Shown here: one piece after another, positions 24,603-60,214 of the stretch
How positions within the stretch are numbered: position 1 is the stretch's first letter
How the letters are laid out: each line of letters begins with the position of its first letter
Origin: Diabrotica undecimpunctata
Lineage: Eukaryota > Arthropoda > Insecta > Coleoptera > Chrysomelidae
DNA: 64,000 bases
Direction of reading: 5' to 3'
Assembly: GCF_040954645.1 (NCBI RefSeq)
Contig: NC_092810.1
Coordinates: 77,046,160 to 77,110,159, forward strand
The notes under the pieces: generated by a model
What the model was told of the DNA's origin: nothing
What the model saw: the letters and a program-made list of their open reading frames with translations, nothing else
Databases searched by the model: none
Program-made: the position numbers and the translations under genes

Positions 24603-24606
<4 letters not shown>

Positions 24607-25010
24607 ATCAAAATAAATGAAATTATTTGCTACGTAATTATTTTAATTTTTCGAAATAAAATATTTAATTGTAATTAAAAGCAAGCTATATGTATGAACG
24701 TTTCTTTTTTCAAATTGTCATACAAAATTACTGTTTAGTTAATTATAGTTGTGAATGACGTTTATTTTTGTTTTATCAATTCTCTGTATTATTTAAATGG
24801 TATGCATTCTAAAGTACATTATTATACGATTGATAGAGTGGAGATTGTTGTTCTAAATTGTTAAATTGTAATAAAAAAAAAACTTGTTAAATTGTAAGAT
24901 TGTAAAAGTTGGAAGATTTTGTAATTATTCAAAAACTTACGGTTTTTTGTGTTCTTAGACGTTGAGGATCCCTTGCTTCTGGTGGGTTCTGCAATCGGTC
25001 CTGTCCTTTG

Positions 25011-25440
25011 GCTGCTCTGCGGCTCTAGTATGGCTCTCGGCTTTGGTACTGCTCTCGGCTCTAGTATGGCTCTCGGCTTTGGTACTGCTCTCGGCTCTAG
25101 TATGGCTCTCGGCTTTGGTACTGCTCTCGGCTCTGGTACCGCTCTCGGCTCTAGTATGGCTCTCGGCTTTGGTACCGCTCTCGGCTCTAGTATGGCTCTC
25201 GGCTTTGGTACCGCTCTTGGCTTTGGTACCGCTCTCGGCTCTAGTACCGCTCTCGGCTCTAGTATGGCTCTCGGCTTTGGTACTGCTCTCGGCTCTAGTA
25301 TGGCTCTCGGCTTTGGTACTGCTCTCGGCTCTGGTACCGCTCTCGGCTCTAGTATGGCTCTCGGCTTTGGTACTGCTCTCGGCTCTGGTACTGCTCTCGG
25401 CTCTAGTATGGCTCTTGGCTTTGGTACTGCTCTCGTTCTC
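25011..25440. repeat. 18-base minisatellite
   Basis: Units alternate between GGCTCTAGTATGGCTCTC and GGCTTTGGTACTGCTCTC, with single-base variants. The basic period is 18 with a 36-base higher-order pattern, about 23-24 units. It is GC-rich compared with the surrounding DNA and lies within the leader RNA of the BEL element (read as the complement). Confidence 0.95.
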
Positions 25441-25522
25441 CCGGGTCTAGTGGTCTCTCTCTGCTACTGAGGGTGTTGCTGGCGTGGACTGTATAGGCTC
25501 TCTCAAACTTCCTTGAAGTATT

Positions 25523-25541
25523 CTGTTTCTCGATAGGACCA
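25523..25541 (-). promoter_or_regulatory. BEL primer-binding site
   Basis: Directly inside the 5' LTR, the minus strand reads TGGTCCTATCGAGAAAC. It is complementary to a tRNA end in ...GGACCA. Confidence 0.7.
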
Positions 25542-26007
25542 TGAACAAATTCCCTTCGTTGGCTCAGTGAAGATGTTCGTTCTGTTGTAATGGAAACACC
25601 AAATAATAGTAGCAGAGTTTATTGTTGAGACGTACACTATGGGTGTAGACCCGGGATTACTTTGAGTAGAGACTGATGAAGTTGATCGTTGAAGACTATA
25701 TGTTCGTTGAGTGAATATTGATTGAATGCTTCTCTAGTCAAGAGATATTAGTTTTATATAAATTCTATTTGGGTCAATATTTTTCGCGTACCTAGCGTGA
25801 TATGTGTATTTAATTTATGTAAATTGTTTAACTTTGTCAGTACTTTTGACTGATGTCCAAATTATTATTTATAATTGACCAAATGTGTATGTAACCTAAT
25901 TAACTACGTGTGTGTATTTAATAACAAATAGATTCATTCGGTCTACTGGGTGATAAAATTATACTGTCCAATTTCGGATATGAATTCTGAAGATTTGATA
26001 TTGGACA
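25542..26007 (-). repeat. 5' LTR of the BEL element
   Basis: 466 bases and the same ends as the 3' LTR. It is followed by the CATTTC duplication at 26008-26013. Confidence 0.95.
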
Positions 26008-26013: not shown

Positions 26014-26131
26014 TAAATTTATCAATATTACAAATTAATCAACTTAAAAAAAAAAATTATTTTTATCTTCATAAAGCTAGCCGGTAAATAAGAGCAACTT
26101 GTAGTTTTCTTACATCGCATTCACATATCAT

Positions 26132-26135
<4 letters not shown>
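26014..26135 (+). repeat. 3' LTR, second part, of the long-LTR element
   Basis: It continues the interrupted LTR (TAAATTTATCAATATTAC...) to the terminal TCATAACA. Confidence 0.95.
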
Positions 26136-26209
<74 letters not shown>

Positions 26210-26226
26210 TATATATTATATATACG

Positions 26227-26295
<69 letters not shown>
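26136..26295. repeat. Compound (TA)n microsatellite
   Basis: Two long TA runs are separated by TGTATATATTATATATTATA-type interruptions. The first run is the far half of the array split by the long-LTR element. Confidence 0.95.
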
Positions 26296-26297
<2 letters not shown>

Positions 26298-26670
26298 AAA
26301 CTATTCAACTAGTGAATTCAGAGGTCTAATCGGTCATTCAGGTTGGCCAAAAAAAAAGAAGTCAACTACTTCATAAGTTTATCGAAGACGTTTCGCTTTA
26401 TATTTCTAAAGCTTCATCAGTTCTAACTCAATATGTATTATATTATCGATGTTATTATATATAAACTTTACTCATTATTTAAAACTAACTTAACAAAAAA
26501 AAAACAAAACAAAAAACACACAAACTCTGCAGAAAATAATGTTCATATTCGTAGATACGAAGATTTAAAAATTTTGTTAACGAACATTTGGCTTCATTTA
26601 GACGGTTCTCCACTGAAGGCAAACAAATCTCTCAATTCTGCTTGCTGAATTCACTAGTTGAATACTTTAG
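26296..26670 (-). mobile_element. 375-bp terminal-inverted-repeat element with hammerhead-like core
   Basis: The ends are 26-base inverted repeats with one mismatch (26296-26321 and 26645-26670; core ATTCAACTAGTGAATTCA). The interior has a minus-strand hammerhead-like sequence (26390-26420) and no coding region. It may be a Penelope-derived end fragment or a small non-autonomous element. The short open frame at 26433-26648 has no recognisable domain. Confidence 0.7.
26390..26420 (-). ncRNA. Hammerhead-like ribozyme core
   Basis: On the minus strand the order is CTGATGA (26420-26414), A, an 18-base hairpin with GCTTT/AAAGC arms (26412-26395), then GAAAC (26394-26390) and GTC. This matches the hammerhead catalytic core CUGAUGA - stem II - GAAA. 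Stem III and the cleavage site are not obvious. The extra A before stem II is shared with the two other motifs in this window. Confidence 0.5.
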
Positions 26671-32281: not shown

Positions 32282-32551
<270 letters not shown>

Positions 32552-32557
<6 letters not shown>

Positions 32558-34968
32558 CAACTTGCTATCATTTTTTATTTATAAGTCGTGTATATTCGTT
32601 TAGTGACCTTTGTAGGCTTGGCGCTGTTGTCGGTTTTTCAATATTCCGATTTTTTTATATATTTAATTTTTTACATCAAACCTAAATTTTAAAATCGAGC
32701 GGTAAAATCACTGTATTTGGTATCATTTTAGAGCCAATAGATGTTGCCGATATTATTACTTAAAATAATATTTGGATACATAAAAATATCGATCGGTTTG
32801 GGTCAAGTTCAAATAACAACATTGAAACTACCTGCTGACAAGTTACGGTCTTAACAGGTTTTTTTCTTCGTACAGATGTTATATTTATTCAACCTAGATA
32901 TTTTTTCAAAGAGAATTGTTGGTTGTACAATTATTGGTTATGATTGTGATGAGAATCACATTTTTAATTAATTAATGTTTGACATTTTGATTTCCATTCC
33001 GGACATCGTTCTCAAAAAGCGTGTTTTTGAACAATATGTGTATACACATTTTTACATCATTTGTACAATAAACAAGGTTAAATAGTGGAAATCAAAACGT
33101 TAAGTGGCTTAATCACATAAAAAATAATATTTAACTTAACCATGCAACAAGAAAGTATTTCACGGAACTAAAAAAATTATTCAAATAAAAGTTGTAGACC
33201 ATAAAAGGTTTTTTATGTTGAGAGATACCAAATTATAATACATAAATAATTGACCGAGATAATTGCAAAAAACCCTAAACTCTAAAATATTATGTTTTTA
33301 GTAATTTATAAATGTTAATAACTTTGTTTTTGTCTAACGGCAGGTAATATAGCTACTTGAAATTATGACAATTAATGAGATAATTAATTAATTAATTAAT
33401 TAAATTAAAGTGTGCTAAATATCAAGCAAATCGAAAAAATTGTTTACAACTTATTCAATTTGTTTATCCCAGAGAGCGATTATTTAAACAACTCTACTTG
33501 TCCAAACAGTGACTCTATGTACAAGTATTTTGTAATTTGCAATCCATTCTTTGCTCCTTCAGTTTTAAGGTTAACGATGAGACTACCAAAGAGAATTGAA
33601 GTGCTATTATAAAAATAGTACCTCAATCAACCATGGGAGTTTATCGTCTATGCCTTGCCTAGCAAAACCAAACATATTTATTAAAAAAAATAAGAAACAA
33701 TAATCAACCCTGCCAAAGCTTAACAATAATTAGTGAGGATGGTACTTATGGTATCGATGAGCTGCTTGTATGTCCTCCCAATTAGATGTTATGTCCTCCG
33801 GAGAGCTGTAGTTGTAACATGTGGATATAGCCCCGTGATTAAGTGGTTAATAAATTCTTAAATATGGTCTATTAAATTTATCAATAAATTCTTCAATATG
33901 GCCAATAAATTTGCCAATAAATTCTTCAATATGGTCAATAAAGCCGCTAATAAAATTTGAATGTTGTCAATAAACCCAAGAGAGTTTTGTAGACCATAAA
34001 ATGAATCTTATATAAATTTTAAAAATTTCAAAAGAGGCAAAAAATTATATTCCCACTACGTTAGAAAAGTTGACTGACAGAAAGTAGGAGGACTGAATGA
34101 AGTTAGCACAGATGTCATAGGATGTTCCTATATTATAGAATTAGCTTTTCTGTCAACACAGAACAGAATATTTAGTATTCTGGACAGAAAGAGAAAGAAA
34201 AGAAAGACAGAGGAAGAAAAGACAAACAGAGGGCGCCAACTACTTTTTAAATAAAAAAATAGTAAAAACTAAACTGGAGATAAAGAAATTAATAAAGAAA
34301 TTAAAATAAAATAATTATTTAAATCTAAATTAATAAAGGTTTATTAAAAAAAATTCCACATATTATTAAATTTTTTATTAAATCCAGTTTGAATAGGGGA
34401 CTTTTTAGCTTCTAAACATTTATAATAACTTTGATATTTTTTATGTCACACGCTTATAAGTAATCTTAATGAAAAGCTGAAGAAAAAAAAACAGAACCTT
34501 ATTTAACCATAAGAACTAAGATAGCATTTAATTCTTAAAATCATATTTTCATTGTTTATTAACACTAAGATCTAAAAATTGAAAGGATTTTAAATTAAGA
34601 TCTACAATGTATGATCGAAGTTATAGATGGCATATACAGTAAAGGAGTAAAAAGTTATAACCCATTAAAATAATGGTATTCGTAAATTACTGCCACGGAA
34701 AAGTGGTGGTAAGAACTGTCTGAGCTTCGTTTTTTTTTTTAGATTAGAACTTTAAATTGAAGCACGCTTGCAAAATATTTAATATCTCGGCTTCTGTGGC
34801 ACGTAGAACCTTCATTTATTTACTGGGGTAGCTCAACTAAATAATAAGAATTGTTAAGAAGCCTTAAGCTATCTTTGTTAGAATCTATGGAAATCAACAA
34901 ATTAAAAAACACAGATATAATTCTGAATGACCAGCTTGAGACAAACAGTTCTCCCCTCCTCAACCTAT
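32552..34968. other. AT-rich non-coding DNA
   Basis: No coding region is recognised. Near 33849-33970 a roughly 45-base unit built on CAATAAATTCTTCAATATGG is repeated imperfectly three times. A (TTAA)n-like run lies at 33380-33402. The 66-aa open frame at 33412 has no known domain. Confidence 0.5.
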
Positions 34969-42400: not shown

Positions 42401-42681
42401 TGTAGCGAGATTAAATAAAACGAGCGGTTTGAATTTATATAAATATATTTATTTATAAGTTTACAGTTCGGTACTCTTTTATCAACTAAAACTCTACTCC
42501 TAACATCGTTACATATATATACCAAAAGTATTATTCTCGAATCTTGTGTGGTAGTCCCACCTCTAATTCGTCTCATCGAAAGCGCATCGAAGACGGGCGA
42601 TATTGAAATGCCAATTCTTGTGTTTTCTAGATTTATCCTTCTAAGAATTATGACGTATCGGAGATAGGCTAGTTCGTTACA
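42401..42681 (-). repeat. 3' LTR of the macrodomain-carrying Ty3-like element
   Basis: 281 bases; on the plus strand it begins TGTAGCGAGA and ends GTTCGTTACA, giving TG...CA ends. The assignment rests on the ends and on the adjacent polypurine tract. No second LTR copy is in the window. Confidence 0.7.
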
Positions 42682-42695
42682 CTGCTCCCCTCTTA
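42682..42695 (-). promoter_or_regulatory. Polypurine tract
   Basis: Minus strand AAGAGGGGAGCAG lies directly before the LTR start TGTAACGAAC. It primes plus-strand DNA synthesis in this class. Confidence 0.75.
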
Positions 42696-42746
42696 GATCT
42701 GAGCGTCCCGATCAGCAATTCCAGATGTAGGCCCAGGATGGCGGAA

Positions 42747-43289
42747 TCAACAGAGCTCTCCAGCTCTGCATGAACCCCTCAAGAAGAAATAACAGTCTAC
42801 AGACTTTGAAGGACACGATCTCTTCGGGTTAATACAACACACAGTAATTCGTACGCCGGTTTCTCGGAAGATCACTTCAAGCATGCTTCTGACAATCTTC
42901 CAATCCAGATTTTCTGGTGCATGGCCTATCTTGGGTAAGGCCAAATTCTTGATGTCATAATTGCACACGATTTTCTTCAAAGTAGCTAGAGCACGCCATA
43001 CATCCTTGTAGCTTGCCCTTCCTGTATACGACTTCCTGGTCACCATATACAGCAAAGATCGAGGACCATCTTCTAATCTCAGTACCCTTCCAACTTTAGG
43101 CTGCTGGTTTTTTAACTCGTCCAAACGACCGAACTTCCTATAGAATACAGATGAGATTCCTTTAGTCATCTCAAGATCTTGGGCAACACAGTGGGCTAGA
43201 GAGACGTTATGCGGAACACTAAAAAGATCCTGCTGAACTTCTGTCGTCACACCGAATCTAGAACTCTTTCTGTCTGCGTAACTTGACAT
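42747..43289 (-). CDS. TARG1/OARD1-like macrodomain protein in an LTR retrotransposon
   Basis: The intact 180-aa ORF starts MSSYADRKSS, 22 bases after the integrase stop. Residues about 18-153 form a macrodomain close to the OARD1 (TARG1) type, which removes ADP-ribose from proteins: DLFSVPHNVSLAHCVAQD, MTKGISSVFYRKFG, LLYMVTRKSYTGRASYKD and LALPKIGHAPENLDW. By alignment from memory, the catalytic Lys of TARG1 corresponds to Arg85 (next to Lys86) and the catalytic Asp to Glu126. So hydrolase activity is doubtful while ADP-ribose binding may remain. A Cys-rich tail (residues 154-180) follows. Its place between integrase and 3' LTR is that of an accessory gene. It could counter host ADP-ribosylation, which is an inference. 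Confidence 0.85.
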   Translation of the reverse strand: MSSYADRKSSRFGVTTEVQQDLFSVPHNVSLAHCVAQDLEMTKGISSVFYRKFGRLDELKNQQPKVGRVLRLEDGPRSLLYMVTRKSYTGRASYKDVWRALATLKKIVCNYDIKNLALPKIGHAPENLDWKIVRSMLEVIFRETGVRITVCCINPKRSCPSKSVDCYFFLRGSCRAGELC

Positions 43290-43311
43290 TCACTAATTCA
43301 CTAAAGCTTGG

Positions 43312-44252
43312 TCACCGGTCATCTTTGATCTCATGTTGAAGGGTTCGTACTTCTTCTGTTTCATTTGAGCCAGCATATGGTGCAAGACGATTTATGTGAA
43401 CTACTTTTGGTTTACCTTTCGGCAACTTCTTAATTCGGTATATTACGTCATTTATTCTCTTTTTAATTTCATACGGACCTTCCCATTGTCTTTGCAGTTT
43501 GGGAGACAAGCCTCGACGACGTTGTGGATTATAAAGCCAAAAAAGGTCACCTACTTCATAGCTTTCATTCTTGCATCGAGAATCATATTGATCTTTCATT
43601 CTGTCACTGGCTAACTGGATGTGTTGTCGGGCAAGTTCATGAATGTTATCCATTCTTAACTTCAGACGGTCGACATAATCTTCGCTTGCAACATGTTCTT
43701 CGGAAGGTCTGCAGCCAAACTCTAGGTCGCAGGGCAAACGAACTTTACGACCTAACATCAGGCAGACTGTAGTCTGACCTATAGTTTCATTCACGGCCGA
43801 GCGGTAGGCCATTAGGAATAAATGAATGTGCTGGTCCCAATCTCTTTGATGTTCTGATACAACTTTGGACAGGTGTTTATCAATCGTTCGGTTCATTCTC
43901 GCGACCATTCCATCTGATGCAGGGGTGTCATTCTGGTCTTATTGACACCAATCAATTTACAAATGTTTTGGAAAAGGGTTGACTCGAAGTTTTGCCCTTG
44001 GTCGGAGTGGATCTCCAAGGGAACACCAAATCGGCTAAAGAATTCTTTAAAAATAATACATTTCGTAAAATAATCCATGGCTACCAGGATATATTTATTT
44101 CCATCATTTGTCTCTGGAAGTGGACCTGCAATGTCGATTGCTACTTGTTCAATAGGACTACCAACATTGTACTGTTTCATGGGTGCCCTGTTTTTACCAA
44201 CTGGACCTGTGGCAGATTGATAGTTAACCTCCAGCCACACATGGGTTGACAA
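43312..44252 (-). pseudogene. Ty3 integrase core and C-terminus (frameshifted)
   Basis: The catalytic core (43893-44252) has VAIDIAGPLPETNDGNKYILV (first Asp), HSDQGQNFES (second Asp) and a C-terminal break. The next frame (43312-43908) resumes with NRTIDKHLSKVVSEHQRDW, FLMAYRSAVNETIGQTT and a C-terminal domain (YEVGDLFWLYNPQRRRG, WEGPYEIKKRI). The frame changes by one base near 43905-43915, around the position of the catalytic Glu. An inverted duplication (44208-44268) disrupts the junction with the zinc finger. Confidence 0.85.
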
Positions 44253-44814
44253 CTATCAATCTGCCACAACCATTACTGGTTGCACACATTTCACATTTCC
44301 GGCACCATCTTCTTACATCATCTTTACAGTTCACCCAATAGAACCGTTCTCGAACCTTTTGCAGAGTCTTCGTAATACCAAAGTGTCCACCTGATGCACC
44401 GTCATGCAACTGACGCAATACTTCTGACACTTTACTTTTAGGTACAATAAACTGAAGCTTAGTTTCTGTACCATCATCGTTCTCAAAGGTTCTATACAGA
44501 AGATCATCTTTCAGCATTAGGCAATTCCATTGGCTCCAGTAACACTTGACTTCTGGACTACATGCACTAATGTCTTGCCAAGAAGGTCTTTCACTTCGAC
44601 GCATCCAATCCAGTAGTCTTTTTATACATGGATCATCTGCTTGAGCGTCTTGTAGCTGTTGAGGTTGCCATTGATCATTAATGACGGTGGTTCGTCTCAC
44701 GGGGCAAAGTCGTTCTTCTAATTTAAGACAGTAATTACAATTTGCACTGCGTGGCCGTCTCGAAAGGGCATCAGCATTTGAATGAACTCTGCCAGATCTC
44801 GATCTCTTAATCAT
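44224..44814 (-). pseudogene. Ty3 RNase H end and integrase zinc finger
   Basis: SNADALSRRP marks the end of RNase H. LHDGASGGHFGITKTLQKVRER with WCRKCEMCATSNG is the integrase HHCC zinc finger. Further upstream (44881-44940, other frame) only the last part of RNase H (LRTDHAALKWLLQF region) remains, because about 200 bases including the N-terminal RNase H residues have been deleted after FEHLQMA. The last residues before the stop are produced by the inverted duplication. Confidence 0.75.
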
Positions 44815-44936
44815 ATTCTTGTAATCGTTCTAACCATCTTGCCATCTGGCCCTCTGGATTACGGAATTGTAGAAGCCATTTTAAAGCAGCGTGATCCGTG
44901 CGAAGAAGAAACTTTCTGCCATACAAGTATCGCTGA

Positions 44937-46235
44937 TCAGGCCATTTGTAAGTGTTCGAAAGCTCTTTGACACTCTTCGCTCCATGTATATTCTTTGCCT
45001 TCTTCTGTCAACTTTGTTAATGGCTTGGAGATGTTGGCAAATCCTTTGACAAAACGTCGGTAATATGTACATACGCCAAGAAAACTTCTAATTTCGTGTT
45101 TATCTCTTGGTACTGGCCAATCCTTAATTGCTGCAAGTTTTTCAGGATCAGCTTTTACACCATTACTTGCTACAATATGTCCCAAGTACTTAATTTCTCG
45201 TCGAAACAAGTAACATTTCTTCGGACTTAACTTCAAATTCGCTGCCCGCAATCGTTGAAAGACTTCTGTCAGATTATTGGCATGTTCATCAAAGGATCTT
45301 CCAACTACAATTACATCATCCAAATAAACCAGGCATGTTTTCCATGTTAGACCTCTTAAAACTCCCTCCATTAATCTTTCAAATGTGGCCGGGGCATTAC
45401 ATAAACCAAAGAGCATAACTGTGAACTTCAAAAGCACTTTTCAGATCGAGTGTGGAGAACCAACGAGAACTAGAAAGTGTATCCAAAGTATCGTCTATTC
45501 TTGGCAAACGATAACTATCTTTTTTAGTTACCGCATTGAGCTGTCGGTAGTCAATAGAAAAACGTGTTGAACCATCTTTCTTCTTTACTAGCACTACTGG
45601 TGATGTCCATGGACTGTTTGATGGTTCAATTACCCCTTGTTTGTTCATATCTTTGATGATGTCTTCGGCTTCATCTCTTTTCGCAAATGGAAGTCGTCTA
45701 AGTTGTTGTCTGATTGGCTGAGCGTCTCCGGTATTAATTTTATGCTTTACTATGCTTGTTTTGCCATTATCCTTCTTATCAATGGCAAAAACATCTTGAA
45801 ATTCTATCAACATAGACTTCACTTTTTTAGTTCGTTCATCATCAAGATCTTGGCACGTTTTAATCATCGTCTCAACAAGCTCCTTTGGATACTTAGATTT
45901 CGACGGTTTCTCATTAGTATTCATGGAACAAATCGAAGCCACGGGAACACACTGTCCGATCAAAGTTCTTTTACTTAACTTAATAGCAGTTCGCTTTAAT
46001 TTCATAACTCTTACAGGAACGACATCTCGAATTCTCACCAAAGCTTTTGCCGTTAGGAACTCGGCATTGTTCACATCTTTGACCATCCTTAAATTACCGG
46101 ATATTGTTATGTCACAAGTAGTTATTAAGCTGATAACATCCTCTTTGTCTTCATGAAATGGCAACTCTTCACCACTGATCTCGAGAACTCCATCTTTGAC
46201 ATTCAATACAGCCCCAACTTTCCTTAGTAAAAGAG
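44937..46235 (-). pseudogene. Ty3 protease-RT spacer and reverse transcriptase
   Basis: The upstream frame (45397-46235) carries AEDIIKDMNKQGVIEPSNSPWTS, VVLVKKKDGSTRFSIDYRQLN and FSTLDLKSAF (RT motif A). The next frame (44937-45437) has FGLCNAPATFERLM, VYLDDVIVVG (motif C) and FLGVCTYYRRFVKGFANI. A one-base shift near 45410-45437 separates them. Upstream of the RT lies a spacer typical of this element group. The annotated ATG at 46371 is in fused Penelope sequence and so is not the true start. Confidence 0.85.
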
Positions 46236-46360
46236 GTGTGACAGAAAAATTGAAGCCTTTTGATAGAGCTTTGGTAGCTGAATCGGATATGTGAATATCT
46301 GAGAAATTGCGGACAACAGTAGAAGGTTGTTGATTCGAAATGGGCTTTGGAGTTTGTTCT

Positions 46361-47037
46361 TTCAATCCCAACTGAGAAAATCATTTGTCAAACTGAAGAA
46401 GCTATTTCTCATCTTCCTTCCAAACAAGCCGAAGTCGCCAGACAAGATGTCGCCAGAATTTTCCGTACTTCCAAACCCCCACCGTCAAATATCAGTCTTT
46501 CAGAAAGACGCTCCAAAGATGATAGGTCATCTGAAATTAATTCAATAAGACAAACACTCTTACAAAACGGCTACCACAAAACCCAAATCAATAAGAGCAT
46601 TCAAAAACATCTAAACCCCATTCCATCCAAAAAAGAAACCTTGCCGCCGGATCAACCCAAAATCTTTCTACCTTTTATTAAAGGTGTCACTGATAAGATC
46701 AGTAGAACTCTTCTTCCTCTAAATATCAAAACCATCTTCACTACTCACTCCAAGTTGTCCAATCTCGTCAGATCCGTAAAAGACCAAATCCCTAATGAAG
46801 ACCATGGTGTCTACGAGATACCCTGTTCCAGTTGCCCACGTACATACATCGGACAAACAAACCGACGAATCCATAACCGTATTTACGAACATTCTATATC
46901 TGTCAAACATTCCGATACTACTTCAGCCCTAGCCCAACATCATATTCAAACAGGCCACAAAATAGATTTCGAAAAAGCAAAAACCATCGCCCCCATTCGC
47001 TCCTTAACATCGAGAATCATTCGTGGAAATCTATCCG

Positions 47038-47040
<3 letters not shown>
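46361..47040 (+). pseudogene. Penelope-like ORF with RT deletion and GIY-YIG end
   Basis: SIPTEKIICQTEEA and EVARQDVARIFRTSKPPPSNI are the N-terminal region. Directly after SERR the frame jumps to the pre-endonuclease region (QTLLQNGYHKTQINKSIQK) and then GIY-YIG (VYEIPCSSCPRTYIGQTNRRI). All RT motifs are lost by an internal deletion that kept the frame. The C-terminus runs into the (TA)n array, giving a meaningless Ile-Tyr tail. Confidence 0.8.

Positions 47041-47124
<84 letters not shown>
47041..47124. repeat. (TA)n microsatellite
   Basis: It truncates the GIY-YIG frame. Confidence 0.95.
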
Positions 47125-47127
<3 letters not shown>

Positions 47128-47289
47128 CTATTTATTGTCTATTGGTTATTGGTTAACTATTTATTATCTCGAGCTTTCAATTGTGTTAACAATTAATATC
47201 AAGAGCTGCTAAAAAAGACAAAATATCTTACAAAGTTGAACTAGAAAGAAAAAAAATTTTTGTTAACTCACCAAATAAAATTAGTTTGG

Positions 47290-48060
47290 TTAATAAAATT
47301 GCTGCAAATACATTTCAAAAAGAATTAATTCTTTTTGAATTGATGTGGTCGTTTTTTCTAGATAGGTAGTGGGATCGTTTGGGACGCGCTTGTATTCTGT
47401 GGAATTAAGAAGTTCGAACATTTTGTCGAAATGATTAGAAGAATTAAGAATGACGGTGGCATTACCTTTGTCGGCCGGAAGGATGACAATGTCAGAGTTG
47501 TTATAAAGTTCTTTGAGGGCGCGTTTTTCTGAAATACTGATATTTGACGGTGGGGTTTGGAAGTACAGAGAATTCTGGCGACATCTTGTCTGGCAACTTC
47601 GGTTTGGTCGGAAGGAAGATGAGATATAGCTTCTTCCGTTTGACAAATAATTTTCTCAGTTGGGATTGAAAGAGGAGTGACAGAAAAATTGAAGCCTTTT
47701 GACAGAGCTTTGGTAGCTGAATCGGATATGTAAATATCTGAGAAATTGCGAACAACAGTTGTTGTTCGAAAGGTTCTTGATTCGAAATGGGCTTTGGATT
47801 TTGTTGAGAGATAAGTTGGTCCATTTTGCGTTTCTGGGTTTGGGTTTTGTTGTCAGAAATGTGTTGAGCTTTTTGGTGAGAAATACGATCGAAAGTGTCC
47901 CATAATAATGGATGGATATTAAAGAAGTGGATGTCATTGTAAATTTTGAAACCCGTTTTGGAGCCATTTTCAAGAGTGATGATACGGTTCGGTTCGACTT
48001 CGGGGTTTCAATCTGCCTACTCCCCTCACTCGAGACGTACCAGTATCGTGTTCTACGATA
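47290..48060 (-). pseudogene. Penelope-like ORF N-terminal fragment
   Basis: In alternating frames I see PKPISNQEPF, the ALSKGFNFSVTP region, IPTEKIICQ and SEKRALKELYNNSDIVILPADKGNATVIL, then FDKMFELLN. This covers the N-terminal 250 residues or so, ending before RT motif A. There are several frameshifts. It duplicates the beginning of the neighbouring plus-strand fragment in opposite orientation. Confidence 0.75.
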
Positions 48061-48389: not shown

Positions 48390-50189
48390 TTAAAGTTCAA
48401 TTGGGGTTTCTGATACTTCTTCATTTTCTGGGCGTACGTCTGATCTTCTTTTAAAGGTTAATCCTTTAAGTTTCTGTTTAATGGAACTGCTACGATGTGG
48501 TGAAGGTGGAGGTGAGTCCTGCGAATAGTTCATGACAAGTCTTGGATATCTTTTGGGTCTACATTTGCAGAAGATGTATACAAAAACTAGAATGATAATT
48601 AATGGTAATGAGAATATAGTTAACCAAGGCAAATGTTCTTCGATGAATGGTTGGTTCATGATTCGGTCGAGTTCTTCTGAATATTGGTCCAGCTTGTTGT
48701 GCAATATTTAAATCATCTGAATTAATCTTATTAAGTTGTAATGGTTTCAAATTGGTATGTGGTTTCTTCTTTCGAAATGGTCACAACATCTGTATGGAAC
48801 ATTAACTGGATGAATTCTGCAGGTTATATTTGGATATTTATCGATTTGATCTCTGGCGTGGACTCTAGTACTTCCAATAAATGCTTTACATTCGGGTAGT
48901 AATCTTAGAATTGTGTTTACTTTGATTGTCTGGGTACTGATATCTTTTCTTTCACACTTGATTGTAACTGGTAATGGATCGGATACTGTTATTAACCATA
49001 AATTTCTGTCAATTTCTTGCACATTGTATGTAATCTTGTGCTAAAAACGTTGACATCTGACAAGTTTTTGGTAGAACGCTAACTGGTTTCAATAACTGAG
49101 CTTCACATATAGTATCACTGTCTATTGGATAGGGAAGAATATCTGTGCACATTCTCTGGTTTGGACTAATTGATTTGCATTCTTCTGTGTTTCGGGGTAA
49201 TACATATGAAATTGAATCATCATCTCGTGCTAAATACTTATGTATTGTAGAAAGTGTATGAAAAAGACCAGTTTAATATATATAAATACAATATAAACGA
49301 TATAAGGTATAGATTTCGGGATCGACTAGTGGAATTTCTAGGACGAATACAATTTTTGAATCGAGTTGATATGCTTGAAGTTCTATTATATCAATATACT
49401 GGGCTATATTTGATGTATAAATAGGCAATGGTAATACATTATTTTGGAATGATTGTGAGATGGCATTCAAAATGTCATTAAGATAATTTTCTAAAAATAT
49501 GTAGCTTTCCATTAACGATTCACACAAATTTAAGGTTTGTAATTGTGCGCGGTAAAATGATATGTCGTCAGCAATGTCTATAAAAGTGGTTTCGATATCG
49601 TTTATGTCTTTGTTAAAACTTTCTTCGTCTATTTGTAATTTTTGGATAGTAGTGTTAAAAGATTTTATGACAGAAGTTGTAACAGAAGTTTGGTTCTTTA
49701 GGAGTGTTTCTATTTGATTTTCATCTGTAGTGATCCTATTTATACATTGTTTGAAATATACACCGTCTGATTTCCACTAATAGATTTTTATAAGGTTCCA
49801 ACACCATTGATTAATCCTCGTTTTTGGCGTGGATTATAGGCTCGTGTGTCGGCAGTTACTTCTCTATATTTTAAATTTACGGAATTTGAAATTTGTCTTA
49901 TCAAACTAATGTGTGTTTGTACTTCGGATTGAAATGCAAGATTCCTTGGTGTATCGGCATTAGTACATCTATCTAGCAAGTTTTCTAAAATTCTGTCGTT
50001 GTTGGATATGGCAGTTTTTATAGGGAGCAATTCCTGGCAAACAAGTAATGTCCATTTATCGTTAGATATTCGAATGGTACCTTCTTCATGATAGAAGATT
50101 CCGACTGTTTTATTAATAGGAGAGAGGTGAAATTGGGAGTAGGCGACTGAAAATAGTCCATAGAATCTGTAAAGAAGAAACTTATTCAA
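48390..50189 (-). pseudogene. Errantivirus-type envelope, broken
   Basis: Read from 50189 downward: an N-terminal part with a hydrophobic start (LYRFYGLFSVAYS) and a furin-like site followed by a Gly-rich hydrophobic stretch (NPRQKRGLINGVGTL). A helical middle region (FLENYLNDILNAI, 49273-49527) follows, then a Cys-containing ectodomain (48747-49022). The final part has one transmembrane helix (LTIFSLPLIIILVFVYIF) and a basic tail (48390-48704). At least three stops or shifts separate these segments, so no full-length protein is made. This layout is the F-like fusion protein shared by gypsy-group elements and baculoviruses. Confidence 0.8.
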
Positions 50190-54076: not shown

Positions 54077-54099
54077 TAATGAGTAATCATTGGGATTTT

Positions 54100-54691
54100 C
54101 GGATCATTTCTGATAGTGTGGCATGGAATCTTTCTACAGATCCATTGGATTGTGGATGATTTACACTAGAAAATGTTAATTTTATATCATAGAAGTTGCA
54201 TAGATCTTTAATTATGGCATTTTCGAATTCTTGACCACAGTCACAATGTATTCTTAAAGGTGTTCCGTAATGTTGGAAAAATAGAAGGAGTGTACTCGCT
54301 ACGGTGACTGCCTTTTTATCAGTGAAAGGGTATGCCTGAGTGAATTTAGTTAGTTCATCTCTAATGGTTAATGCATAGTTTCTATTTATGCTTTATTTGC
54401 TCGGATCATTTCTGATAGTGTGGCATGGAATCTTTCTACAGATCCATTGGATTGTGGATGATTTACACTAGAAAATGTTAATTTTATATCATAGAAGTTG
54501 CATAGATCTTTAATTATGGCATTTTCGAATTCTTGACCACAGTCACAATGTATTCTTAAAGGTGTTCCGTAATGTTGGAAAAATAGAAGGAGTGTACTCG
54601 CTACGGTGACTGCCTTTTTATCAGTTAAAGGGTATGCCTGAGTGAATTTAGTTAGTTCATCTCTAATGGTTAATGCATAGTTTCTATACAC
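54100..54691 (-). pseudogene. Integrase catalytic core with a 290-base tandem duplication
   Basis: The segment 54402-54688 is repeated at 54100-54386 with almost no change (for example AGTTAAAGGG against AGTGAAAGGG) and a 15-base spacer (TTATGCTTTATTTGC). Each copy encodes YALTIRDELTKFTQAYPLTDK, HCDCGQEFENAI (second catalytic Asp) and NHPQSNGSVERFHATLSEM (catalytic Glu). The duplication would insert a second core and break the protein. Confidence 0.85.
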
Positions 54692-55060
54692 GGTTCACAA
54701 TTTGTCGATAGCTCACTACAAGTTTAACCCTAATTAGAGAGCTGAAATACAGAGAGGATAGGTAATACGATATAATAGTAAAAACCAACCTGAAACTGGC
54801 GGTTTAAGATGTTTTCGACTAACCCACCTTGTATCTGAAATAATACAATACCTTATAATCCTATTACGAAGGTATATTAAAAGGTTACAGATGTGTTACA
54901 CCAGTGTCGTAGAGTATATGATTGAAACATTTTTTTGAACTAAATAAATATATTTTTTAAATTGTACTTATGTAAATTGTATTTTTTAATAAAACTTCTT
55001 TATTTTATTCAAAAATAAAAAGTTTCTTGCCATTTGTAAAAGATACATTTATTTAATTAA

Positions 55061-55458
55061 GGGGAAAGGCGCCAAATGTCGCCTGGCATAATTTCCAATG
55101 TGTTTTAAATGTATCCATTATTTTCGAATTCGTAGAAAACTAATAAATATTTTTGAAAAATTTAAACGCAGAATGAAAGATTACATTATTACTGAGGGCA
55201 GAAAGTCCCTGAAAACTTCTACAATGTTTATTTTAATATGTTATGTAACAGGGGTGAAAATAAAAGAGAAAATATAGTATAATTTTTAATTGAAAATATT
55301 GCATGCAAAAGAAACTTTTTATTTATTCTAATAAATATTTCATTTTGCCTTTAAATTTTTCAAAAATGCTGTTTAGTTTTCTCAGGATTTGAAAAAAAAA
55401 TGGATACATTTAAAACACATTGAACATTTTTACAGGCGACATTTTGCGCCTTTCCCCT
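55061..55458. mobile_element. 398-base MITE with 60-base terminal inverted repeats
   Basis: The ends read GGGGAAAGGCGCCAAATGTC on the left and, inverted, AGGGGAAAGGCGCAAAATGT on the right. Matching continues for about 60 bases to TGTTTTAAATGTATCCATT. TTA or TTAA flanks both sides (55057-55060, 55459-55462), so it fits a piggyBac-like MITE. No coding region. Confidence 0.8.
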
Positions 55459-55515
55459 TTAATACCTTACGATTACAACTATTATTACTTACCTTATATA
55501 ATTACGATTAGAAAA

Positions 55516-56890
55516 CTATTCAAATTCAAAATAAATAGGATCAACTTCGGAATCCGAGTCATCTTGAGGGTTAATAATTAGCGGTTGTGTCTCTACGGTC
55601 GCATCAATTATGTTATCAAGATCCCACATTTTTTGTTCTTCTTCTATTACATGCCGTACTGCATCTTTCCAGTTTTGTTCTGTAATATGTTGTAAAGACT
55701 CGTATAACAATCACGTACAGCTTGTATTTTATATAACGTATTTTTACTAGCCACATAACTTTTCATTTGTGCCCAAATGAGTTCAATTGGATTTATTTCG
55801 CAGTGGTAGGGTGGAAGTCTAAGGACTGTAATGTTTCGCCTTTCCGCCATTTTGTCAACTACGTATTCCTTGAACTTAGATTTGTGTTGTTGGGCAATTT
55901 TTAGAAGTTCTGCTTTTACCATTCCATCTTCGTAAGGCAGATACTTATTCCGCAGCCAGTCAAGAATATCCTGTTTCTTCCACGGAGTCGTTGGAAGTCT
56001 TTCTACTAGTCGTGAATGATAAGGTGCATTATCTAATACTATAATTGAATTTGGTGGTATGTGTTCAATCATCTGCTCAAAATACTCTTCGAAAACATCA
56101 GCTGTCATCTCCTCGTGATAGTCTTTTGTGCTTTTGGACTGAAATTCCAACAAACCATGCTTAACAAATCCTTTTTCACTGCCAATGTGAGAAATTATTA
56201 ATCTACTGCCTTTACCAGAAGGTGGGGAGATACCAGTAGACCAACCTTCCATAAAGGCTTGCCTGGAGCTTAATATATTTTTATCTGACCAATTTTTTTT
56301 TAGAGTATGACCTGAGTTTACCCACGTTTCATTGTGGTAGAAGATGGGCCTTCCTTCAGCCCGGAATTTTCGTATGGATCTAGATAATTTCTTCTCCAAC
56401 ATATTATCTCCCCCCGGTCAATCAAAAGTGATTTTCAGTCTGATTTCTCCCACCGGAAATTTAATTCTTTTAAAACTTGCCACAATTTAGTTCGTCCGAT
56501 ATGAGGCAAATCCGGGTCGTCTCTAACTTCTTGTAAAATTTTGTTTAGGTTTGGTATTTCTTTTTGAAAAAAAAAAAATCCATGAATTTTCCTTCGAATA
56601 CCATTTTTGGCAAATTCATCAATTTCAATAGGCTTTTTCCCTCTCTTTAAGTGTTCGTTTGTGTTTTTGTTAGCTATACCGTGTTTTTTTCTTTCTGATA
56701 GGAACCTATACCAACCAGTCATGTTGGCACAACTTTCGACTATGTTGCGAACAGTGTTTGTGGGATTCTGAGAAATCAGAGCATCGTGAACATTCAGGAC
56801 AATAGTCTTCTCTCTTGGTGAATAGACAGACTTACTGACTGTACGCAACAATACCGGTGTAAAACTTGATGATGTTGATGATGAAGCCAT
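55516..56890 (-). pseudogene. DD82E transposase, inactivated
   Basis: The probable start is the ATG at 56890 (MASSSTSSS). The N-terminal DNA-binding part (to 56435) ends with a TGA after RWEKSD. The catalytic part (55647-56402) has HNETWVN where the first Asp should be (Asn24 of this frame), VLDNAPYH (Asp124) and NPIELIW (Glu207). Exactly 82 residues lie between the last two, which is the D-D-82-E spacing of the Sailor group. A shift near 55700 leads to the C-terminus (LYESLQHITEQNWKDAV, 55516-55710). The stop, at least two shifts and the Asp-to-Asn change show the copy is dead. Confidence 0.85.
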
Positions 56891-57031
56891 CACAAACAAT
56901 CCAACAAAACGAGCACGAGCGAAAGGTACGTATATGTCCGTAGGTATATGGAATAAAAAATCACTCACGCACTGCATATAATTCGCAAAAGAAATATTCG
57001 AGACGCTAATTACTGCCGTAGACGCGGACAC

Positions 57032-57480
57032 ACCGACGCGACGAGCCGTAAATTACATGCGATCAAAAACGTACTAAACAAAAAAATTGTTTTCGTTCGT
57101 AATAACTTCACCCTTTTAAGTTAAGTTTCGAATATAAACTGAACAAACGAGGCACGTGGCCAAAGCATACCTATTATATTATTAAAAATCTGGGGAATTC
57201 CATCCTAATTATCTTGCAACGAATAGTACCTTCGGATATGAATTCCAGGTTTTCTAGTAAAGTGATTAAACGCGAAGATTAGTATTGAAATATCCAAAGA
57301 GATAAGGTATTCTTATTTACAAAATTGTTAATGGTTAAATTCTTATTTTTATTAATATAATATAATTACATAACAGCCGTGAAAGTTTTAATTGTTTTTT
57401 TGCTAAATATATTAGTATTAAAATATTATTAATATTATATATATAACAGTATTAAAAAATATTATATTATTATTTAATGA
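57032..57480. other. Non-coding end of the mariner-type element
   Basis: AT-rich, with several TATATA and ATTATT tracts. No gene or further repeat recognised. Confidence 0.5.
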
Positions 57481-57570
57481 ATAAACACCTAAGGAACGCC
57501 TATGGTTTACGACCGTTTTATGAGTTTGAGGCACATTTCGTGATCTCAACAATTTATGAACGGAGAATAG

Positions 57571-57842
57571 TGGGATATTCAAATATGTCTATGTTGATCC
57601 TTTCAAATGGCGTTTTCGGTGTTTCCGTTATAACTAATGGTCCACTTAAATTTTTTCTGTAAATTTTGACCTTTTGGCAAATTTCACAGGCTTTTATATA
57701 TTTTTCGACATCTTTTGCTAAGTTCTTCTAATTATATTTTTCTTTTATACGTCTGACGGTTTCGTTTATTCCTCTGTGCAAGTTATTTTTGCCACAATGG
57801 TAATGTTCTAGGATTTGTGGGGTTTCGTCTTCACTTGCCTGT
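57571..57842 (-). pseudogene. Integrase zinc finger of the errantivirus-like element
   Basis: The minus strand encodes ILEHYHCGKNNLHRGINE, then YIKACEICQKVKIYRKN and ITETPKTPFERINIDIFEY. This is the HHCC finger and the start of the catalytic core. It has in-frame stops (for example after KEKYN) and is cut by the mariner-type insertion. Confidence 0.75.
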
Positions 57843-58289
57843 TTAATTACATTTTGGCAGGATTTTTAATTTAAGTTCTTTGTCTGCAAATATATATAAA
57901 AATATTTCTAGAATGGGAAGTTCGAGATTATTTTCTATGCAATAGGTCTTTGATTCGTCAAATTGTTCTTGGTTCGCATAAAGTATGAGAAATAAGTATG
58001 ACATTACTCTTTGTGGATCGAAAGGTAATGGGATAATGAAATATTTTCGATCTTTTACGGTTTTACTGGATACGATATTGATCCTTCGGTTACTGTATTC
58101 TATATTTTCTTTGAATATGTCACTCATTATTTTTTCTTGCAGGTCCTCAAGTTTAATCTGCCAGAAAAAAGTAAGGATATTCTTGTGAGATTTATCTAAC
58201 AGTTCTGCGTTTGACGTTTCTATTTTGGAGTAATCGATAATGGATTTTATTCTATATAATTCGAGAAATTTTTCGAATTCTTCGGACAT
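57843..58289 (-). pseudogene. RNase H-integrase spacer of the errantivirus-like element
   Basis: The 148-aa frame (EFEKFLELYRIKSIIDYSK, YFIIPLPFDPQRVMSYLF, LPILEIFLYIFADKELKLKIL) fits the linker between RNase H and integrase in gypsy-group elements. The ATG at 58289 is internal to pol. Confidence 0.6.
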
Positions 58290-58294
58290 CTTTT

Positions 58295-58720
58295 CTATTC
58301 CTTCTTCTGTGTCCTCTTTTTCTTCTTCGTCTTCTTCTGTCTTGGTTTCATCTCTGTTAGATGCGTGCAGGGCAAGTTTTGATTGAAACGGTGCTCTATT
58401 TTGAAATTATATTCTTCAAGTTTTAGGCGCCAGCGTGCTAGGCAGCTTCCTAGGTCTTTGATTGAAAATAGCCATGTAAGAGCTCGATGATCCGTGATAA
58501 GAGTAAACTTGCGACCGAAAAGATATGGTCTGAAATGTTTTACTGCCCATACTATAGCTAGTAATTCTCTCTCTATTGTGGAATATTTGGTTTCTGCACT
58601 GCATAATGTTCGTGAGGCATAAGCGATTGGCAGATCTTTTCCTAATGCGACTTGTGACAAAACGACTCCAATTGCGAAAGCACTAGCGTCAGTAGTAAGT
58701 AGTGAGTAAAAAGGGTTCTT
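58295..58720 (-). pseudogene. RNase H of the errantivirus-like element
   Basis: LPIAYASRTLCSAETKYSTIERE, LLAIVWAVKHFRPYLFGRKF and ITDHRALTWLFSIKD are the conserved RNase H blocks, followed by HRFNQNLPCTH where the usual NADALSR-type motif is altered. It ends in a Lys/Glu-rich stretch and is separated from RT by shifts near 58700-59150. Confidence 0.8.
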
Positions 58721-60214
58721 TAAAATTTGGATATATGAGAATTGGGTCTGTCATTAGAATATTTTTGAGATTGTTGAATGCTTCCTTACATTCGGTATTA
58801 AAAACAAAAAGGATATCTTTTTGAAGTAATTTAGTCAGTGGTTTGGAAATTTTGGCAAAATTCGGGATAAATCTACGGTAGTAACCTACTATGCCTAAAA
58901 ATGATTTTATTTCTTTAGTTGTCTTGGGTTCTGGGAAACTTTTTATGCATGATATCTTGGCAGGATTTGTTTTTACTCCGTGTTCAGTTACGAGGTGTCC
59001 TAAGTATGCGACTTCTTCTCTTTAGAATTCACATTTATCCGGTTGTATCTTCAGATTTGCTTTCCTTAATCTTATAAATACTTCTGTCATTCGTGACATA
59101 TGTTCGTGAATGGTGGCTGAATAGATGATTATGTCGTCCATATATACTAAACATCCCTCGTTTTGAATCCCCAAGAGGATGTTATTAATGTGGAAGGAGC
59201 ATTCCTTAATCCGAACAAATTCGTAATGTCCGTTGTCAACTGAAAATACTGTTTTGTTTGGATATCTTTTGGATCGATTTCAATTTGGTGGAATCCGGAC
59301 GCCAAATCTAATGTTGTAAAGTACTGACATTTTCCAAGTTGGTCCAACAATTCTGAAATTTGTTTAAGTGAATAACGGTCTTCTATTGTAACTTCATTAA
59401 GTTTACGATAGTCAATAACGACTATCCATTTCTGTTTGCCAGATGCGTCAAGTTTTTTGGGTACCACCCACACTGGACTTGACTAGGGCGATATGCTATG
59501 CCGAATTATTCCGTGCTCTAGCATTTTGTTGGTTTGTGTCTTTACCTCTTCTTTATGAACCTGTGGATATCTGTAAGATTTCGTATATATCGGTTTCGCG
59601 TTGTTCGTTTGGATTGCGTGCTTAATTTCATTTGTGAATGTTTGTGTTGTGTGAAGCTTGTCACCTTCTACGTAAAATATATCTGAAAATTCCGTACAAA
59701 TGTTTAGAATTTGTTCCTTTTCTTCTGAGTTTAAGTGGCCAATTCTCAGTTGTTCTTTAATTATTTGTTCTCTGTCTATAATTGGATGTTCGCAGTGATT
59801 TTCGTCGTAGGTGAAAATTGTCTCCAAGTTTTCTATAGGTTCGATGGAAATATTCGAAAATTCGATTATTTTTGGCATTGCATTAGCATTAATGACGAAA
59901 GATAAAAAGTCTCCATTTTCGTCTACATGAACTAATGCGTGAGGAATTCGAACTTTTTCGATTTCTTGGGATGACAGTATTGCGTCTGTATTGGATAGGT
60001 TGCATTTTAATTTGAATATTTGTTCTGTTCGGCTATCAATCGAAATTTGGTTTATTTTTTCTTTTATTCGTTTTTTCTCTGGTCTTGGGATGTGTTGTTG
60101 ATCATGAGTGTTTTCATGAAGTGAGCTGCTATTTTGTTGAGCTTTAATGTTTGTGTTTGATTTCGGATATGTTTGAAAATTATTTGGCGGTACTATTTTT
60201 GTAGGAAATGTCAC
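58721..60214 (-). pseudogene. Reverse transcriptase of the errantivirus-like element
   Basis: The frame 59483-60214 holds the spacer and the RT beginning (EVKTQTNKMLEHGIIRHSISP), ended by an in-frame TAG at 59483-59485. RT continues in the same frame with VWVVPKKLDASGKQKW, IDYRKLNEVT and YFTTLDLASGFHQIEI (motif A; 59147-59473). After a shift near 59180-59200 the YMDD box (VYMDDIIIYS) and FLGIVGYYRRF appear near 59140-58860. The RT is non-functional as it stands. Confidence 0.82.

What the first reader, a model, noticed from the sequence alone, without database searches (positions are those of the whole stretch)
42747..43289. A Ty3-type retrotransposon carries a TARG1/OARD1-like macrodomain gene
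An intact 180-aa ORF sits 22 bases after integrase and before the 3' LTR polypurine tract, on the element strand. Its blocks (SLAHCVAQD, YMVTRKS, ALPKIGHAPENLDW) match ADP-ribose-processing macrodomains. The reverse transcriptase and integrase around it are broken, but this ORF is intact. Viruses use macrodomains to counter host ADP-ribosylation, so a retroelement accessory gene of this kind would be notable. The two positions matching the catalytic Lys and Asp are Arg85 and Glu126, hinting at binding without normal catalysis.
Basis: partly seen in the sequence, partly recalled or inferred. Interest (0 to 1): 0.88.

Follow-up and report, generated by a model that had tools for sequence, protein, structure and literature searches.

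The report
ADP-ribose-type domain in beetle retrotransposon polymerase
A family of beetle jumping genes carries, on the end of its own polymerase-integrase protein, a relative of a cellular enzyme that removes ADP-ribose tags, followed by a zinc finger; the copy first noticed is a decayed member of that family.

Summary
The 180-aa ORF is real and is a TARG1/OARD1-like macrodomain (PDB sequence hit E=3.5e-26; model fits TARG1 at 0.9 Å). It belongs to the surrounding Ty3 element but is not a separate accessory gene. In four relatives of 1372-1379 aa one ORF reads protease-RT-RNase H-integrase-macrodomain-CCCH zinc finger and apparently continues through the polypurine tract into the LTR. The "22 bases after integrase" are decay of that joint, and the ORF's stop lies inside the finger. 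Relatives come from Diabrotica, Aromia, Molorchus, Pyrocoelia and unnamed contigs. Macrodomain and integrase diverge together. TARG1's catalytic Lys/Asp pair is kept in 125 of 131 proteins and lost in 6 of 6 window/Diabrotica ones, so Arg/Glu is a lineage trait. Best reading: Pol delivers an ADP-ribosyl-hydrolase to the replication or integration complex; a chromatin-reader role is the main rival. No activity data or dN/dS exist. Fish retroviruses with macrodomain ORFs are earlier (cited in PMC4977317); seven targeted open-access searches showed no Pol-fused TARG1-like domain.

The parts
42672..42681 (-). Presumed first bases of the 3' LTR, TGTAACGAAC; the far end of the LTR is not determined
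   Evidence: Position after the PPT; no second LTR copy in the window
42682..42694 (-). Polypurine tract AAGAGGGGAGCAG
   Evidence: what looks like the same PPT/LTR boundary in translation (LRGEQCNE, LRRGQCN and similar) ends relatives P0005, P0006, P0008, P0009, P0012, P0013, P0014, P0113, P0125, P0127; pattern in 104 of 131 proteins. Relatives' DNA was not seen
42738..42794 (-). C-x7-C-x5-C-x3-H zinc finger; a stop codon (42747-42749) lies inside it in this copy
   Evidence: Weak PF00642/PF18345 matches, below cut-off; all four ligand positions kept in 119 of 131 proteins; PF00642 above its cut-off in P0113 and P0127
42837..43247 (-). TARG1/OARD1-like macrodomain core (residues 15-151); Arg85 and Glu126 at the catalytic Lys84/Asp125 positions
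   Evidence: phmmer to PDB E=3.5e-26 to 5.1e-26 for five C6orf130/OARD1 sequences; AlphaFold mean pLDDT 80.3, 10-residue blocks of residues 11-150 at 83-97 except 76 for 121-130, the block with Glu126; Foldseek best hit TARG1 4j5s_C, E 2.9e-15, rmsd 0.9
42747..43289 (-). The 180-aa ORF of the finding
43290..43311 (-). Decayed integrase-macrodomain joint: a stop and a frame change where relatives read straight through
   Evidence: open joint in P0009, P0010, P0012, P0013, P0014, P0113, P0125, P0127
43378..43479 (-). Integrase C-terminal p58 domain with GPY motif, PF22938
   Evidence: E=1.3e-12, above cut-off; GPY seen in the translation
43291..44216 (-). Integrase core and C-terminal part, in two frames
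   Evidence: tblastn with P0013, P0113, P0125, P0127; rve PF00665 E=1.2e-6, below its cut-off
44260..44974 (-). RNase H end and integrase H2C2 zinc domain, frame-broken
   Evidence: PF17921 E=6.5e-22
44940..46230 (-). Reverse transcriptase and the region before it, in two frames; upstream of 46230 the alignment stops in a repeated, Penelope-like sequence; protease start, gag and 5' LTR not found
   Evidence: RVT_1 PF00078; repeats at 46230-47805

Best explanation
The ORF is the severed C-terminal end of the Pol polyprotein of a Ty3/gypsy LTR retrotransposon lineage known here from beetles. Relatives with an open frame encode protease-RT-RNase H-integrase(GPY)-linker-TARG1-like macrodomain-CCCH finger in one ORF that appears to end inside the 3' LTR. 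Shown by sequence: the domain order, homology to TARG1, joint divergence with integrase, and retention of the TARG1 catalytic Lys/Asp pair in the lineages seen other than window/Diabrotica. Inferred mechanism: Pol is packaged into the particle, so the domain reaches the reverse-transcription and pre-integration complex. There the macrodomain, held near nucleic acid by the CCCH finger, removes ADP-ribose that host ADP-ribosyltransferases place on element RNA or cDNA ends, on Gag/integrase, or on chromatin at the integration site. In the window/Diabrotica lineage the catalytic Lys became Arg and the GCGLD loop was rewritten (mostly to GH..E), so there it more likely only binds ADP-ribose, or uses another chemistry. 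I put the anatomy at about 0.95 and the eraser mechanism at about 0.45.
For: Anatomy: P0013, P0113, P0125, P0127 (1372-1379 aa on contigs of 4562-6188 bases) hold PR, RT, RNase H, H2C2, rve and p58C by Pfam with macrodomain plus finger behind. Partial Pol P0012, P0014 and short P0009, P0010 have the same open joint. The window aligns colinearly from Pol residue 74-77 to the finger, 46230 to 42738. The integrase end motif lies upstream in the same chain in 117 of 131 proteins, with 20-25 aa up to the profile match in 115 of the 117 (most are near-copies). Joint descent: Mantel r=0.71, 1 of 2000 permutations as high, nine rows; 15 element rows split from human OARD1+P0011 at 99/99. Catalysis: Lys/Asp in 125 of 131 and 12 of 12 non-Diabrotica representatives, as are the Gly and Leu before Asp. 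Chemistry: TARG1 removes ADP-ribose from RNA ends and, as cited there, from DNA ends and Glu/Asp (PMC6582358, abstract and passages), and from thymidine in DNA, needing Lys84 (PMC8501950, passages). In mammals ADP-ribosylation touches retrotransposons: SIRT6 ADP-ribosylates KAP1 in L1 silencing (PMC4695847, passages), and ZAP, a CCCH PARP-family protein, restricts retrotransposons (PMC4982230, passages).
Against: No activity, binding, expression or packaging data. No relative's DNA could be read, so no dN/dS. 114 of the 120 proteins listed (of 174 found) come from two genome annotations (Aromia, Molorchus) and are largely near-copies; only eight proteins and the window were distinct under 92% identity. 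Of the 120 only 4 cover the RT and 6 the integrase core, so the continuous Pol rests on few sequences, all unnamed. The macrodomain changes faster than integrase (median identity 0.55 against 0.68). The window/Diabrotica lineage lost the pair yet left several diverged copies, so catalysis is not needed everywhere. Pfam's Macro model reaches its cut-off in none of the 13 proteins scanned for it. The finger is mostly modelled at pLDDT under 50. Whether beetles ADP-ribosylate retroelement products is not known to me.
Confidence: 0.5

Rival explanations
1. The macrodomain is an ADP-ribose reader that steers integration, as the chromodomain is thought to do at the C-terminus of chromovirus integrases: it tethers the integration complex to ADP-ribosylated chromatin such as breaks or PARP-active genes, and the finger binds element RNA.
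For: Position behind the GPY/p58C domain with 20-25 aa up to the profile match in 115 of 117 proteins, comparable to chromodomain-bearing integrases (PMC5408687, passages). Loss of the catalytic pair with retention of the fold in the window/Diabrotica lineage. Chromatin macrodomains are among the weaker fold hits: macroH2A1.1 at rank 26 and ALC1 on a PARylated nucleosome at rank 37, the latter with rmsd 12.5; that they are readers is recalled.
Against: A pure reader would not need the Lys/Asp pair, yet 12 of 12 non-Diabrotica representatives keep it. No insertion-site data were available. No chromodomain was reported.
Confidence: 0.25
2. Counter-defence in the strict sense (a sub-case of the best explanation, so the odds overlap): insects restrict retroelements by ADP-ribosylating their RNA, proteins or silencing factors, and this domain evolved to reverse it, as viral macrodomains do.
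For: Alphavirus macrodomains are among the fold hits (rank 12) and a coronavirus one at rank 28. TARG1 and MACROD-like viral hydrolases reverse RNA ADP-ribosylation (PMC6582358, abstract). SIRT6 ADP-ribosylates KAP1 in mammalian L1 silencing (PMC4695847, passages).
Against: I made no search for insect ADP-ribosyl restriction as such and know of none. The element domain is TARG1-like (ranks 1-8) rather than viral-like.
Confidence: 0.2
3. A host OARD1 gene or pseudogene only happens to lie beside an integrase fragment.
For: The ORF is separate in this copy, and Diabrotica gene models are named OARD1-like.
Against: Open frame with integrase in relatives, PPT/LTR-like end peptide, joint divergence with integrase, separation from human OARD1 and P0011.
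Confidence: 0.02
4. A captured but dispensable passenger domain, carried by hitch-hiking and drifting to decay.
For: Faster divergence than integrase; long stem and loop loss in the Diabrotica lineage; no dN/dS possible.
Against: 38 human-OARD1 positions kept in at least 11 of 12 diverged non-Diabrotica representatives, including Lys84 and Asp125; finger positions whole in 119 of 131 (mostly near-copies).
Confidence: 0.1

Closest known systems
TARG1/OARD1/C6orf130 (ALC1-like class macrodomain hydrolase)
   Same: Fold: rmsd 0.9-1.5 Å to the 4j5s and 4j5r chains, 35-36% identity for the window ORF and 40-42% for P0009; Lys84/Asp125 kept in 125 of 131 proteins
   Different: Fused to the end of a retrotransposon Pol and followed by a CCCH finger; in the window/Diabrotica lineage the Lys/Asp pair and the loop are replaced
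Chromoviruses (Ty3/gypsy elements with a chromodomain at the integrase C-terminus; PMC5408687, passages)
   Same: An extra cellular-type domain at the integrase C-terminus of an integrase with a GPY motif
   Different: Macrodomain plus CCCH finger instead of a chromodomain; ADP-ribose as presumed ligand
Teleost fish endogenous retroviruses with macro-domain ORFs (Basta et al. 2009, J. Virol. 83:10152; seen only as cited in PMC4977317)
   Same: A retroelement that has acquired a macro domain
   Different: Described there as additional ORFs in epsilon-like vertebrate retroviruses; the macrodomain type was not visible to me. Here it is part of Pol in an insect Ty3 lineage
Bdelloid rotifer LTR retrotransposons with captured ORF3 (PMC5408684, passages)
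   Same: Captured enzyme domains beyond gag and pol
   Different: GDSL esterase or DEDDy exonuclease as ORF3; no word beginning with 'macro' in the main text
Viral macrodomains (alphavirus nsP3, coronavirus nsp3)
   Same: Macrodomain fold carried by a replicating element
   Different: More distant in fold than TARG1 (alphavirus from rank 12; IBV nsp3 rank 28); RNA viruses

Membership tests
TARG1/OARD1-like macrodomain (fold family) | Sequence homology and macrodomain fold closest to TARG1 | tested here: met
   E=3.5e-26, profile of four relatives E=1.4e-43, Foldseek ranks 1-8 all TARG1/C6orf130. Against: Pfam Macro below cut-off or absent in all 13 proteins scanned
TARG1 hydrolase | Catalytic Lys84 and Asp125 | tested here: not met
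   Window copy has Arg85/Glu126, and 6 of 6 window/Diabrotica proteins lack the pair; 125 of 131 proteins in all keep it. The window copy is therefore not filed as a TARG1 hydrolase; its relatives meet this feature
TARG1 hydrolase | ADP-ribose binding and hydrolysis | not testable with these tools
   Needs purified protein
Ty3/gypsy LTR retrotransposon | PR-RT-RH-IN order with H2C2, rve and p58C/GPY domains | tested here: met
   Pfam on P0013, P0113, P0125, P0127; window pieces
Ty3/gypsy LTR retrotransposon | Two LTRs, primer-binding site, target-site duplication | tested here: inconclusive
   PPT and TG start seen; no second LTR in the window; primer-binding site and target site not examined
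Chromovirus | Chromodomain at the integrase C-terminus | tested here: not met
   None reported by Pfam in the window pieces (E up to 1) or in P0013, P0113, P0125, P0127, P0015, P0099 (E up to 0.01)
CCCH zinc finger | C-x7/8-C-x5-C-x3-H with Pfam support | tested here: met
   All four ligand positions in 119 of 131 proteins; PF00642 above cut-off in P0113 and P0127, otherwise below cut-off or not reported; interrupted by a stop in the window copy
Retroviral-type accessory gene | Separate ORF | tested here: not met
   Open joint with Pol in relatives; the separation in the window is a stop plus a frame change

The most novel reading that the evidence does not exclude
A beetle Ty3 lineage carries its own ADP-ribosylhydrolase inside Pol, joined to an RNA-binding-type CCCH finger. 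It uses this to reverse host ADP-ribosylation of its RNA, cDNA ends or integration site, and in one branch (Diabrotica type) the enzyme has turned into an ADP-ribose reader for integration. This would be, to my knowledge, the first retrotransposon with an eraser of ADP-ribosylation built into Pol, and would suggest that insects ADP-ribosylate retroelement intermediates.
Probability: 0.3. Interest if true: 0.9.

Novelty: new variant of a known kind. Interest (0 to 1): 0.74.

Why it matters
ADP-ribosylation is contested between hosts and RNA viruses, and in mammals it has been tied to L1 silencing (SIRT6-KAP1, PMC4695847, passages). Whether retrotransposons answer with their own ADP-ribosylhydrolase is open. 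A macrodomain fused to Pol, with its catalytic pair kept across diverged lineages, makes that question testable with one purified domain. It would add a module to those known at the end of Ty3 integrases, next to the chromodomain, and offers a natural comparison within one family (Lys/Asp type against Arg/Glu type). For annotators it explains gene names such as 'ADP-ribose glycohydrolase OARD1-like' in Diabrotica and 'C3H1-type domain-containing protein' in Aromia: these are, at least in part, transposon Pol ends.

Tried and rejected
Host-gene neighbour: rejected, though no beetle host OARD1 could be compared. Separate accessory gene: rejected by open joints in relatives. 'Only this ORF is intact, hence selected': rejected, P(0)=0.28. 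IMG/VR searched with two alignments: 39 and 13 pattern matches, none confirmed. GTDB genomes with one alignment: 57 pattern matches, none confirmed. Search of the window's own assembly was asked eleven times with the same request and never answered, so copy number and dN/dS in the source genome are unknown. Second LTR: none found. The other Ty3 remains (54096-59812) as a second carrier: the macrodomain profile hits the window once only. Papers not held: Sharifi 2013, Basta 2009. The last paper search was too broad (4,263 papers, 12 listed, TARG1 and OARD1 counts 0 in all 12). Several listed papers were not opened. Skipped RT and rve in Aromia and Molorchus gene models as real deletions: 10 of those 114 models were looked at one by one and the joints vary, so I take them as gene-model artefacts, not proven. 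The clade of the element within Ty3/gypsy was not determined. In one search two proteins (P0077, P0128) were dropped for poor integrase alignment (recounted), and proteins with little sequence before the macrodomain were left out. TARG1 Gly123 as a binding residue is recalled; the one paper checked does not mention it.

Full report
What is there. The ORF at 42747-43289 on the minus strand encodes 180 aa. Against the PDB it matches human OARD1/TARG1/C6orf130 over residues 15-151 at E=3.5e-26. Pfam's own Macro model does not report it, and gives only weak CCCH zinc-finger matches at the C-terminus; in all, that Macro model reaches its cut-off in none of the 13 proteins scanned. An AlphaFold model from a 12-row alignment has mean pLDDT 80.3 with the core well predicted; the weakest core block, 76, is the one with the catalytic loop. 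Its eight best Foldseek matches are all TARG1/C6orf130 structures, the best at E=2.9e-15 and rmsd 0.9 Å.

Surroundings. On the same strand lie integrase C-terminus, integrase core, H2C2 zinc domain, RNase H and reverse transcriptase. Full-length relatives align colinearly from 46230 down to 42738, with six frame changes and two stretches of relatives' Pol unmatched, for P0127 between residues 364-385 and 549-615. Upstream of 46230 the alignment ends in a sequence repeated at 46230-47805; that it is Penelope-like is my reading of the text of the ORFs there (Pfam found nothing in the one scanned). Protease start, gag and 5' LTR were not found. Downstream, AAGAGGGGAGCAG at 42694-42682 is followed by TGTAACGAAC, the presumed LTR start. 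No second LTR copy is in the window.

It is part of Pol. The first protein search found five Diabrotica proteins and P0006 from an unnamed contig; a second, with P0006, added P0008-P0011, among them P0010 from the firefly Pyrocoelia pectoralis. P0009 and P0010 begin with the integrase end (..VHFNRL..) and run into the macrodomain without a break; P0010 is a gene model. A third search, limited to the macrodomain part but open to long proteins, gave 174 hits of which 120 were listed. 114 of these 120 are from Aromia moschata or Molorchus minor; six are from unnamed contigs (recounted). Four of the unnamed ones (P0013, P0113, P0125, P0127; 1372-1379 aa on contigs of 4.6-6.2 kb, so with little room for introns) contain protease, RT, RNase H, H2C2, rve and p58C domains by Pfam and end in macrodomain and CCCH finger. 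The integrase end motif lies upstream in the same chain in 117 of 131 proteins; P0009 starts inside that motif and was not counted. Near the end of many relatives stands LRRGQCNE or similar (pattern in 104 of 131; ten named ones). In the window's DNA the same stretch is polypurine tract and LTR start, so Pol appears to end inside the LTR; the relatives' DNA was not seen. In the window the joint between integrase and macrodomain holds a stop and a frame change, and the ORF's stop falls within the finger. The separate 180-aa ORF is thus a decay product.

Caveat on gene models. Of the 120 listed proteins only 4 cover the RT and 6 the integrase core of P0125 (P0125 itself included), while 118 cover p58C and all 120 the macrodomain and finger. 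The Aromia and Molorchus models that I looked at skip RT and rve, at joints that vary, probably because repeat masking led the gene finder to splice round them; this is inference. The claim of one continuous Pol therefore rests mainly on the unnamed contigs.

Joint descent. Among nine rows less than 92% identical (eight proteins and the window; two proteins dropped for poor integrase alignment), pairwise integrase and macrodomain distances correlate (r=0.71; 1 of 2000 permutations as high; drop count). In a tree of 17 macrodomains the 15 element rows separate from human OARD1 and P0011 (a short protein without finger or integrase) at 99/99, and the window groups with two Diabrotica proteins at 100/100 on a stem of 0.69 changes per site. 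Only 4 of 14 inner branches are well supported and the human row is long. With two non-element sequences and no beetle host OARD1, the source and number of captures stay open; one capture is the simplest reading. The macrodomain diverges faster than integrase (median identity 0.55 against 0.68).

Catalytic pair. TARG1 is proposed to use Lys84 and Asp125 (PMC9411070, passages); K84A is inactive (PMC8501950, passages). Both are kept in 125 of 131 proteins (P0011 among them) and both are replaced in 6 of 6 window/Diabrotica proteins, Lys always by Arg, Asp by Glu in five and Val in one (the profile was built from ten of these proteins). In 12 non-Diabrotica representatives Lys, Asp and the Gly and Leu before Asp are kept 12 of 12. 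The window differs at 9 of the 38 positions kept in at least 11 of 12, four of them in that loop.

Selection. Seven disablements in 2940 bases of Pol predict 1.3 in 540 bases, P(none)=0.28, so this says nothing. Better evidence is conservation across lineages and the whole finger in 119 of 131 proteins, though most are near-copies. dN/dS could not be computed since no relative's DNA was available; eleven requests to search the source genome did not complete.

Mechanism. Retention of the pair argues for chemistry, and the place in Pol argues for packaging and presence during reverse transcription and integration. TARG1 removes ADP-ribose from RNA ends, and from DNA ends and Glu/Asp as cited (PMC6582358, abstract and passages), and from thymidine in DNA (PMC8501950). 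The CCCH finger suggests closeness to RNA; ZAP, a CCCH PARP-family protein, restricts mammalian retrotransposons (PMC4982230, passages), and SIRT6 ADP-ribosylates KAP1 in L1 silencing (PMC4695847, passages). I infer an eraser delivered with Pol. The main rival is a reader that steers integration like the chromodomain (PMC5408687, passages), which fits the Diabrotica branch better. Substrate, packaging and benefit are not shown.

Comparison with what is known. Fish retroviruses with macro-domain ORFs were described by Basta et al. 2009; I saw this only as a sentence and a reference in PMC4977317, the paper itself not being held. Captured enzymes beyond pol are known in bdelloid LTR elements (PMC5408684, passages). 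Seven targeted searches pairing macrodomain or macro domain with retroelement terms listed no paper that by title, abstract or opened passage reports a Pol-fused TARG1-like domain; an eighth was too broad to count. The library lacks most subscription journals, and no repeat database was searched. I rate it a new variant of a known kind.

Identity of the source. The nearest proteins are from Diabrotica (75-84% identity) and the window is rich in BEL/Pao, GIY-YIG/RT and Ty3 sequence, so it is most likely from a chrysomelid beetle; the species is not established.

Noticed in passing
16413-26007: BEL/Pao element with two 466-base direct repeats identical to each other (16413-16878 and 25542-26007), ORFs of 1062 aa (H2C2, DUF5641, and a Baculo_F envelope-like match just below cut-off) and 1179 aa (DUF1759, RT, Peptidase_A17): a very young insertion, perhaps env-bearing.
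   Followed up: partly
7226-9833 and 13801-16413: 2.6-kb direct repeat, 98.9% identical, flanking ORFs at 10108-12984; its right copy ends where the BEL/Pao repeat begins.
   Followed up: no
2448-4195 and 5494-7227: Inverted pair, 99% identical, overlapping ORFs with RT and GIY-YIG domains (Penelope-like is my reading).
   Followed up: no
54096-59812: Remains of a second Ty3 element (30-51% identity to P0013 by piece) without a macrodomain; an integrase piece is duplicated in tandem at 54099-54385 and 54401-54687.
   Followed up: partly
49273-49776: Baculo_F envelope-like fragment near the element, on its upstream side, where an envelope gene of this element would not be expected.
   Followed up: no
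25006-25435, 26123-26302 and 32283-32562: Short tandem satellite-like arrays; the last two share units in both orientations.
   Followed up: no
P0015-P0131 except P0113, P0125, P0127: Aromia and Molorchus gene models, as far as looked at, join gag or protease regions to integrase end, macrodomain and finger and skip RT and rve; artefact of masking or real deletion derivatives.
   Followed up: partly
P0005, P0006, P0008, P0009, P0012, P0013, P0014, P0113, P0125, P0127: The Pol ORF appears to read through the polypurine tract into the LTR, so that the Pol stop would lie in the LTR.
   Followed up: partly
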